Positions 1-2,478 of a stretch of 38,173 nt of DNA are shown piece by piece. A program made the translations under genes and the position numbers. This DNA comes from Desulfovibrio sp. (GTDB taxonomy: Bacteria > Desulfobacterota > Desulfovibrionia > Desulfovibrionales > Desulfovibrionaceae). The stretch is from positions 1-38,173 of the forward strand of contig JAEEPQ010000007.1 of NCBI GenBank assembly GCA_016284885.1, written 5' to 3'. The notes under the pieces were generated by a model. That model was not told the DNA's origin and ran no database searches. It saw nothing but the letters and a program-made list of their open reading frames with translations. The stretch's first letter is position 1. Every line of letters starts with the position of its first letter.

Positions 1-901
1 GGCCGAGGCCCGGACGGTCTCTGAAGTCCGGAACCAGCAGCTTCATGAAGAGCATCTTGGGGGGCACCGGCGTCTCGCCGCCCTTCCGGATGGCCTCCCC
101 GTTGTCGCCGCGCCCGTCGGTCATGCCGATCAGTTCGTAGCCAGCGGCCTTGTAGCACGCTCCGTCGTGCTTCGCGGGGTTCACGAACGTTTCGATCAGG
201 CAGGCGTCGACGCCCCATTCATCCCTGTACACCTTCCTGGCGAAGTCTTCTCCCATGGCGATGACTTTGGATGCCAGGTTGCGGCAGCCTTTCGTCCGGA
301 CGAGAAGGCGGCTGTTGAAGATGATGATTTTCCTGGCGAGCGCGTCCCTCTGCTCCGGAGTGAACTGCACGAAGTCGTCCCTCAGCGCAAGGGCGTCCAC
401 GGCAGAGGAGAAGCACATGCACGCCAGAAGGCCGTGGACGGAATAGAACAGGAGTCTGAGCGCACGTCCGGGAGGCACGGAGGCTCCGACGTCGTGCTCG
501 GTTTCAAGCGCGGTGTTCCAGGTCAGGAGCTCCAGGTCGGTTGTGACTCTGACAATCCAGATCTTCCCGATCTTTTCGACGCTGTCCGGAACCCCCTCGG
601 GCAGGGGCACCGGCTCAGGGAGGCACCGGGGCTTGCGGGAGCGCTTTTCTCTGGGAGGCTCCCAGCGGAGCGAGCTCTGGAGATCGAGGATCCCGTCGCG
701 GTGAAGCTCCTCCAGAGCCCGTGCGCAGGTGTGATCCCGGTAGCTGCCGCAGGCGTTGCGCAGCTTAAGCGCTGCGCAGAGAAAGTACGCGAACTGGAGA
801 AGGGTGCGTCCAGCCTGATCCAGAAGCCACTGCCGAACCTTTTCCAGTACCTCGGGCGCGGAAAGGGTTTGCTTGAGAGTAGAAATGTCATGCGTATCCA
901 T
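1..901 (-). CDS. DUF4338 / DruA-like protein, 3' end truncated by window edge
   Basis: Hand translation of the minus strand from ATG at 901 is open to base 1: MDTHDISTLKQTLSAPEVLEKVRQWLLDQAGRTLLQFAYFLCAALKLRNACGSYRDHTCARALEELHRDGILDLQ...GLLACMCFSSAVDALALRDDFVQFTPEQRDALARKIIIFNSRLLVRTKGCRNLASKVIAMGEDFARKVYRDEWGVDACLIETFVNPAKHDGACYKAAGYELIGMTDGRGDNGE... The patterns FxSA..RD, NxRxL, NLAS, LIETFV, GxCYxAAxxxxxGxTxGRG are those of DUF4338. Not in the ORF track because there is no stop inside the window. Confidence 0.78.
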   Translation of the reverse strand, partial: MDTHDISTLKQTLSAPEVLEKVRQWLLDQAGRTLLQFAYFLCAALKLRNACGSYRDHTCARALEELHRDGILDLQSSLRWEPPREKRSRKPRCLPEPVPLPEGVPDSVEKIGKIWIVRVTTDLELLTWNTALETEHDVGASVPPGRALRLLFYSVHGLLACMCFSSAVDALALRDDFVQFTPEQRDALARKIIIFNSRLLVRTKGCRNLASKVIAMGEDFARKVYRDEWGVDACLIETFVNPAKHDGACYKAAGYELIGMTDGRGDNGEAIRKGGETPVPPKMLFMKLLVPDFRDRPGLG

Positions 902-2226
902 GCCAGGGAGGATGGCAGATTTTTCCCGGTTTGTTTATAAAATCCAGTCTGGGCAAAGGTCAGACCGAGCCTGAGTCGATCCAGCTCATCGGCGTACCAC
1001 TGCATCAGCGCACGCCGTCGCTCCAGAAATTCGCTGCGGTTGTACGCGGCTCTAACGCTGTTCTTGTCCGCGTGCGAGAGCTGGGCCTCGATGATGTCCG
1101 CCTCCCACTGGCCGTCCGCATTGGCGTAGGTCGAGAACATGGCGCGACATCCGTGGGGCGTCATCTGCTCCTTGTTCCAGCCCAGATCGCGGATGGCGGC
1201 CAGAAGGGCGCCGTCCGACAGGTGCTTGGACGCCGAACGCGCGGACGGAAAGCCCCATGCCGACCGGCTCGAATCCTTCAACTCCCTGAGCAGCTCCAGC
1301 GCCTGCCGCGGGAGCGGAACGCGGTGCTCCCGCCGGCGCTTCAACCGGCCTGCGGGCACGGTCCACGTTGCGGACTCCAGGTCGATTTCCTCCCATTGCG
1401 CCCCAAGGACCTCTTGGGAGCGGCCTGCGGTCCAGACCGTCATGAGCAGGGCCGCCCGCACGACGGGCGAGTGCGGATAGTTCCAGACGTGCTGCATGAA
1501 CCGGCCGATTTCTCCGTGGTCGGTCTGCGCCGCGAAATGGCGCTTGCCATGGCTTGGCTGGAGGATCATCTGGACCTCAAGGTCCCGGCTCGGGTCCGAC
1601 TGGACGGCGCCGATCCCCCGGCCGTACTTCAGCGGACCCGCGATCGACTGGAATACGCGCCTGGCCGTCTCCCGCTTGCCTTTGAGGGATGGCTGGGAGA
1701 CAACGCGGACAATGTCCTGAGGCTCGAGCCACGCGGCGGGGAGAGAGCCGATTTTTCCGGCGATGTAGGTCTCGTAGTGGGTCCGGCGCTGGGCCACGTG
1801 GGCGTCTCCCCAGGACGGCCGCATGGACTGGTACCATCGCTCGTGGAGCTCGCCAAAGGACATCTCCCCTGAAAGTCGCGGATCGTGGCCTTCCCCGGCC
1901 TGCTTCCGGTTCTCTTCATGCCGTTTCCGCGCCTCCTTGATGGAGGCTTCCGGCCAGACGCCGAGGCCGATTCGGATGCGCTTCCCGCAACGGAATACCC
2001 TCGACTCCCATCGCTTGCTTCCGCTGGGCTCAACAATGATGAAGAGGCCGTTGCCATCGGCGAGCAGGCGCGACCGAAGCTTCCCATCCTCTCCGCGCTC
2101 GGGCTTAAGGGCCTCAATGTCGGAGTTCGTGAGCCGTTCCTTGCCACGGTTCTCGGCCAGACGAGGCCGGCCCCGTCCTTTTTTCTGCGCCTTATTGCCT
2201 GAATCTGCTCTCTTTTTCGCGTCCAT
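523..2226 (-). CDS. P4-type tyrosine recombinase/integrase (with anomalous C-terminal extension)
   Basis: ORF 523..2283; likely start MDAKKRADSG at 2226 with upstream AGGAGG. Arm-binding region (ADGNGLFIIVEPSGSKRWESRVFRCGKRIRIGLGVWPEASIKEARKRHEENRK), RSQEVLGAQWEEID, TPHGCRAMFSTYAN, IEAQLSHADKNSVRAAYNRSEFLERRRALMQWYADELDRL. Recognisable integrase homology ends near position ~950. Confidence 0.9.
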   Translation of the reverse strand: MDAKKRADSGNKAQKKGRGRPRLAENRGKERLTNSDIEALKPERGEDGKLRSRLLADGNGLFIIVEPSGSKRWESRVFRCGKRIRIGLGVWPEASIKEARKRHEENRKQAGEGHDPRLSGEMSFGELHERWYQSMRPSWGDAHVAQRRTHYETYIAGKIGSLPAAWLEPQDIVRVVSQPSLKGKRETARRVFQSIAGPLKYGRGIGAVQSDPSRDLEVQMILQPSHGKRHFAAQTDHGEIGRFMQHVWNYPHSPVVRAALLMTVWTAGRSQEVLGAQWEEIDLESATWTVPAGRLKRRREHRVPLPRQALELLRELKDSSRSAWGFPSARSASKHLSDGALLAAIRDLGWNKEQMTPHGCRAMFSTYANADGQWEADIIEAQLSHADKNSVRAAYNRSEFLERRRALMQWYADELDRLRLGLTFAQTGFYKQTGKNLPSSLAWIRMTFLLSSKPFPRPRYWKRFGSGFWIRLDAPFSSSRTFSAQRLSCATPAAATGITPAHGLWRSFTATGSSISRARSAGSLPEKSAPASPGASLSRCPCPRGFRTASKRSGRSGLSESQPTWSS

Positions 2227-2385: not shown

Positions 2386-2478
2386 TGGCGGAAAGGGTGG
2401 GATTCGAACCCACGTGCCCCATCTCTGGGACAACTCGATTTCGAGTCGAGCTCGTTGCGACCGCTTCGATACCTTTCC
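2386..2478 (-). tRNA. tRNA-Ser (anticodon CGA)
   Basis: Reverse complement GGAAAGGTATCGAAGCGGTCGCAACGAGCTCGACTCGAAATCGAG...GTGGGTTCGAATCCCACCCTTTCCGCCA; 7-bp acceptor GGAAAGG/CCTTTCC, T-loop TTCGAAT, long variable arm, encoded CCA. Confidence 0.93.

What the first reader, a model, noticed from the sequence alone, without database searches (positions are those of the whole stretch)
1..901. Off-track DruA/DUF4338-like gene directly downstream of a tRNA-linked integrase
Seen: the minus strand from ATG 901 is open to the window edge and encodes at least 300 aa that the ORF track omits. The NxRxL...NLAS...LIETFV...GACYKAAGYELIGMTDGRG pattern matches DUF4338 as I know it. Established knowledge: DUF4338 defines DruA of the Druantia anti-phage system and also occurs in transposase-like proteins. 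Inference: a DUF4338 protein as the first cargo gene after an island integrase makes this a candidate defence or mobile module whose other genes lie left of the window. It is either Druantia, a stand-alone variant, or a transposon protein.
Basis: partly seen in the sequence, partly recalled or inferred. Interest (0 to 1): 0.78.

Follow-up and report, generated by a model that had tools for sequence, protein, structure and literature searches.

The report
DruA-domain transposase interrupting an island integrase
The gene at the window's edge is the front part of a cut-and-paste jumping gene (IS4/Tn5 type) that carries an extra DNA-modification-like "DruA" domain and has landed in the tail of an island integrase; it is not an anti-phage Druantia system, but the repeated pairing of this domain with unrelated jumping genes is worth a closer look.

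Summary
Minus-strand ORF 901..2 is open to the contig end and matches Pfam DruA (46 bits, cut-off 27), beside a tRNA-Ser-linked integrase. The defence reading does not hold. The 86%-identical orthologue in a congener (Desulfovibrionaceae bacterium UBA3823) continues without a break from the DruA domain into an IS4/Tn5-type DDE transposase, as do more distant relatives, one in the window's own genome. Two identical copies of such an element in another genome have 5'-CTGA ends and perfect 10-bp target duplications. The same end sequence occurs once in the window, at 963, exactly where the integrase loses homology to its relatives. So 1-963 is the left third of an insertion sequence that truncated the last residues of the integrase gene; the rest is missing from this MAG. 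The DruA domain folds as a GNAT whose closest solved structure is phage Mu's DNA-modifying Mom. In sampled relatives it is fused to IS4, IS701 or ISAs1 transposases, or sits beside ISKra4 or IS66 transposases: apparently a recurrent accessory of unrelated DDE transposons. What it does there is inferred, and the window's lineage has two motif residues changed. I found no description of this association in the papers I could search.

The parts
1..963 (-). left part of a DruA-carrying IS4/Tn5-type insertion sequence, cut off by the contig end
   Evidence: 90% DNA identity to L021 over window 1-926; TIR match at 963; relative encodes a DruA-transposase fusion
942..963 (-). terminal inverted repeat (outer end at 963): CTGACCTTTGCCCAGACTGGAT
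   Evidence: 13/14 match to the right TIR of the duplicated G703 element, the only such site in 38 kb with 0 expected; CTGACCTTTGTCCAGA at the putative right end of L021
2..901 (-). 5' 300 codons of the transposase gene: N-terminal helical region plus DruA (GNAT/Mom-like) domain; the transposase part lies off the contig
   Evidence: AlphaFold2 model pLDDT 88.9
104..592 (-). DruA PF14236 match (residues 104-266), GNAT fold
668..901 (-). N-terminal helical region, residues 1-78 (four predicted helices)
964..2226 (-). tRNA-Ser-linked tyrosine integrase, intact to residue 421 (...YADELDRLRLG); native last residues and stop removed by the insertion
523..963 (-). out-of-frame read-through of the integrase ORF into the insertion sequence (no homology)
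   Evidence: homologues end 0-26 aa after the LDxLR motif
2386..2478 (-). tRNA-Ser(CGA), presumed attachment site of the island

Best explanation
Window 1-963 is the left end of an insertion sequence of the IS4 (Tn5-like) family. Its single gene encodes a fused protein: N-terminal helical region, DruA (GNAT/Mom-like) domain, Tn5-type DNA-binding domain, DDE nuclease. Shown: the ORF, the DruA domain, the fusion in the 86% orthologue, a CTGA terminal repeat at 963, the break in integrase homology at the same base, and mobility of a related element with 10-bp target duplications. Inferred: that the window copy itself continues into a DDE domain beyond the contig end, and that it moves by cut-and-paste transposition. 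It inserted into the 3' end of the tRNA-Ser-linked integrase gene, removing only the last few codons. The DruA domain is proposed to be an acyl-CoA-dependent, DNA-acting accessory related to phage Mu Mom, which modifies or at least binds transposon DNA to help the element; this last step is inference only.
For: Orthologue G056:C106 (86% aa identity over all 300 residues) continues in frame to 736 aa; it matches Tnp_DNA_bind at 27.8 bits (cut-off 24) and IS4 transposase NF033590 at 169 bits (cut-off 160). The own-genome relative in C189 has DruA + DDE_Tnp_1 in one frame and NF033590 at 192 bits. L022, L066, L078 and L027 show the same architecture at 211-428 bits. G703 carries two identical copies with ends CTGAGCC/CTGACC and perfect 10-bp duplications CCTTAGCCAA and CCTTGGCTAA. 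The CTGACCTTTRCCCA end occurs once in the window, at 963-950, with 0 expected. All 19 integrase homologues compared end within 0-26 aa of the point where integrase and element meet. For the DruA domain: top fold match of both models is Mu Mom 8bv8, 14 of 36 members hit Pfam Mom, and DUF4338 is called a GNAT in PMC10853773.
Against: The DDE half of the window copy is not in the held genome and its right-hand junction was not found, so the fusion is read from relatives. DNA identity to L021 stops at 926, 37 bp inside the proposed end; only the outer TIR part is similar beyond it. L021 shows no target duplication and its transposase frame stops short of the C-terminus. The Mom link is weak by sequence (hhalign E 0.046, probability 1%) and Mom TM-scores are moderate (0.43/0.61).
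Confidence: 0.92

Rival explanations
1. Druantia anti-phage module (druA first, other dru genes to the left).
For: Pfam DruA hit; position next to an island integrase.
Against: The orthologue is a transposase fusion; no PADLOC hit; only the short profile region matches; the only MZB/DUF1998 protein in the genome is a 1021-aa frame read as MrfA/YprB-like; a TIR lies 62 bp upstream of the ATG. A Druantia on DNA missing from the MAG cannot be formally excluded.
Confidence: 0.02
2. Two-gene transposon: a stand-alone DruA gene followed by a separate transposase gene (as with ISKra4 and IS66).
For: Such arrangements exist: L033 and L053 beside ISKra4, five loci beside IS66; G606 carries a 2.36-kb element with DruA + IS66-type transposase at two sites.
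Against: The 86% orthologue and the IS4-type relatives of this lineage are fusions; the TIR is of the IS4/Tn5 type.
Confidence: 0.04
3. A decayed or truncated remnant of such an element rather than an intact one.
For: Only the left 963 bp are present; the orthologue L021 has a shortened transposase; C200 of the same genome holds a decayed-looking double copy; motif residues are changed.
Against: The 300 codons have no stop or frameshift and 86% identity to the orthologue; the contig end, not a mutation, ends the frame.
Confidence: 0.25
4. The DruA domain of these transposases acts only as a DNA-binding or oligomerisation module and has no enzymatic role.
For: The window lineage replaces Y137 by D and the D of ETFVD by N, so chemistry may be lost; a helical N-terminus precedes the GNAT fold.
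Against: HY, RD, NxRF, NLAS and ETFVD..GTCYKAANW motifs are near-invariant across the wider family, as expected of an active site.
Confidence: 0.35

Closest known systems
IS4 family, IS50/Tn5-like transposases (NCBIfam NF033590; Pfam PF14706, PF01609, PF02281)
   Same: DNA-binding domain, DDE core, CTGA termini, ~10-bp target duplications, one gene per element
   Different: an extra ~300-residue N-terminal DruA region makes the protein about 740-830 aa
Druantia DruA (PF14236)
   Same: shares the core GNAT-like DruA domain
   Different: long-form DruA proteins (390-430 aa) match the whole profile; the window protein matches 40-222 of 297 and belongs with transposon proteins, with no DruE-type helicase found
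Phage Mu Mom (PF25680, PDB 8bv8)
   Same: best fold match; alignable HY and F(V/A)D...G..Y.A.N(W/F)..(L/I)G motifs
   Different: 14-15% identity; window lineage has HD and FVN at those motifs; no activity shown
ISKra4, IS66, IS701 and ISAs1 elements with a DruA gene or domain
   Same: same domain as fused or adjacent accessory
   Different: unrelated transposase families and different ends

Membership tests
IS4/Tn5-like insertion sequence | DDE transposase of the IS4 family in the same frame | tested here: inconclusive
   Met in the 86% orthologue and other relatives; the window copy is cut by the contig end
IS4/Tn5-like insertion sequence | CTGA-type terminal inverted repeat just upstream of the transposase gene | tested here: met
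   Single 13/14 match at 963-950, 0 expected; similar ends in G703 and L021
IS4/Tn5-like insertion sequence | 9-12 bp target site duplication | tested here: inconclusive
   Perfect 10 bp in both G703 copies; right end of the window element not held
Druantia | DruE-type large helicase (DUF1998/MZB) in the same locus | tested here: inconclusive
   Only a 1021-aa MZB protein on another contig with an RNase H-like C-terminus; the left flank of the locus itself is not held
Druantia | full-length DruA recognised by defence-system models | tested here: not met
   No PADLOC hit; PF14236 match is partial, 40-222 of 297
GNAT superfamily / Mom-like | GNAT fold | tested here: met
   AlphaFold2 model pLDDT 88.9; Mom 8bv8 first (E 6e-7), then many GNATs below 1e-3
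GNAT superfamily / Mom-like | adenine N6 acyl modification of DNA | not testable with these tools
   needs biochemistry; two motif residues differ in the window lineage
P4-type tyrosine integrase | Arm-DNA-bind_3, central and catalytic domains next to a tRNA gene | tested here: met

The most novel reading that the evidence does not exclude
DruA is a Mom-like DNA-modifying GNAT that several unrelated DDE transposon families (IS4, IS701, ISAs1, ISKra4, IS66) acquired independently to mark or protect their own DNA during transposition, as Mom protects Mu DNA; Druantia's DruA would be a co-opted relative of this transposon accessory.
Probability: 0.25. Interest if true: 0.78.

Novelty: new variant of a known kind. 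Interest (0 to 1): 0.42.

Why it matters
Defence-gene scans based on DUF4338 alone will call transposons 'DruA'; the gene here is such a case. If the domain is a DNA-modifying enzyme, its repeated pairing with unrelated transposases links Druantia (whose DruA has no assigned function in the papers read) to Mom-type DNA modification, and makes both testable with a small, clonable insertion sequence.

Tried and rejected
A direct look left of position 1: impossible, the contig ends there. Recovery of the rest of the element from the own genome by its DDE half, by the contig-end DNA and by a predicted junction pattern: nothing. Simple equation of the element end with 926, where identity to L021 stops: given up because the TIR and the integrase homology break both point to 963. 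Target duplications around L021, L027, L005 and L024: none found; for L022 only an imperfect 7/8 candidate. Viral contigs: no relatives. Phages: none. An island attR copy of the tRNA 3' end: only weak 29-40-base tRNA-like matches. Alignment A1 was too diverse for the collection scan. Literature on DUF4338 with transposases: only three held papers mention DUF4338 at all, and the passages read do not discuss the association; papers not held and ISfinder could not be checked.

Full report
What is there. The minus-strand ORF 901..2 is real, is open to the window edge, and carries Pfam DruA at 46 bits. The window is a whole contig (C202, 38,173 bp) of a 332-contig MAG, so there is nothing to read to its left.

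The integrase frame does not stop near its conserved C-terminus but runs on to 523, inside the DruA gene in another frame. Homologous integrases in 19 congeneric loci end 0-26 residues after the motif WADYLDxLR; the window's keeps ...YADELDRLRLG and then continues into unrelated sequence.

What the gene is. A search of 288 genomes of the family found an 86%-identical orthologue (G056:C106; Desulfovibrionaceae bacterium UBA3823). It continues without interruption from the DruA domain into a Tn5-type DNA-binding domain and an IS4-family DDE transposase (736 aa). The relative in contig C189 of the window's own genome has the same architecture, as do L022, L066, L078 and L027.

Element ends. In genome G703 two identical 2.35-kb copies of such an element sit at different sites. 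Both begin CTGAGCC and end GGTCAG, and each is flanked by a perfect 10-bp duplication. The right-end sequence CTGACCTTTACCCA has exactly one one-mismatch match in the 38-kb window, at 963-950, oriented as an element end facing the DruA gene, with none expected in shuffles. It also resembles the putative right end of L021. Position 963 is the base after the last integrase codon that aligns to homologues. The insertion sequence therefore entered the last codons of the integrase gene. Whether the integrase still works with a foreign tail cannot be told.

What the DruA domain is. An AlphaFold2 model from 36 relatives (pLDDT 88.9) has a GNAT fold after four N-terminal helices. Its closest solved structure is phage Mu Mom (8bv8, E 6e-7), as it was for a shallower model of the same sequence. 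Fourteen of 36 members hit Pfam Mom at E up to 0.01, best 3.7e-5. Alignment with Mom pairs its KHY and SFAD...GVVYQASNFDFIG segments with DruA YHYLG and TFVD...GTCYKAANWxxLG, though the profile comparison alone is not significant. Published work already calls DUF4338 a GNAT (PMC10853773) and describes Mom as a GNAT that transfers an acyl group to adenine N6 (PMC7824862). From memory, unverified here, H48, Y49 and D139 are important Mom residues; these are the very positions that align. In the window lineage they read H, D and N, so its chemistry may be lost or changed.

How general it is. In the sampled phylum (395 genomes; 60 with a DruA match) and order the domain occurs fused to IS4, IS701 or ISAs1 transposases and beside ISKra4 or IS66 transposases. 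It also occurs as a long form (390-430 aa) that matches the full Pfam profile. One DruA + IS66-type element of 2.36 kb sits at two places in G606. Some ~300-aa DruA genes had no recognisable transposase next to them within the ~1.5 kb read (L057, L061, L072, L087). This is a sample, not a census.

Mechanism. Shown: domain make-up in relatives, ends, target duplications, insertion point. Inferred: the window copy has the same DDE half; cut-and-paste movement; a DNA-acting role of the DruA domain. Candidate roles are marking or protecting transposon DNA as Mom does for Mu, regulating transposition, or plain DNA binding. I put the enzymatic protection role at about one in four for the transposon family and lower for the window copy.

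Verdict. The local finding is an ordinary IS insertion with an unusual accessory domain. The wider association is the interesting part.

Noticed in passing
L006:5151-9410 (own genome, contig C200): A frame of about 1,490 codons without a stop holds two DruA-transposase units in tandem, cut by the contig end, next to recN- and uppP-like genes. By eye the DDE residues look lost in both units while the frame is kept, which would fit a domesticated transposase pair.
   Followed up: partly
L028:1-1049 (G079:C77): A metK reading frame is joined within its GGGAFSG motif to a DruA-transposase fragment at the contig end; either a real insertion or deletion or an assembly chimera.
   Followed up: no
G606:C1 (L143, L144): A compact 2.36-kb element with GATCACAGG-type ends carries only a DruA gene and an IS66-type transposase, without tnpA/tnpB.
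   Followed up: partly
L026:165-2688 (G226:C61): DruA gene overlapping an ISKra4-family transposase gene, with the strongest DruA Pfam score among the family's genomes.
   Followed up: partly
NZ_CP020372.1:282572-283450 (Candidatus Thiodictyon syntrophicum plasmid): A DUF4338 gene lies between two DUF2235 pieces in a cluster of IS4, IS91 and integrase genes, another transposon-rich context.
   Followed up: no
L021:741-3320: The orthologous element has recognisable ends but no target duplication, and its transposase lacks the C-terminal ~50 profile positions, so this copy may be decayed.
   Followed up: partly
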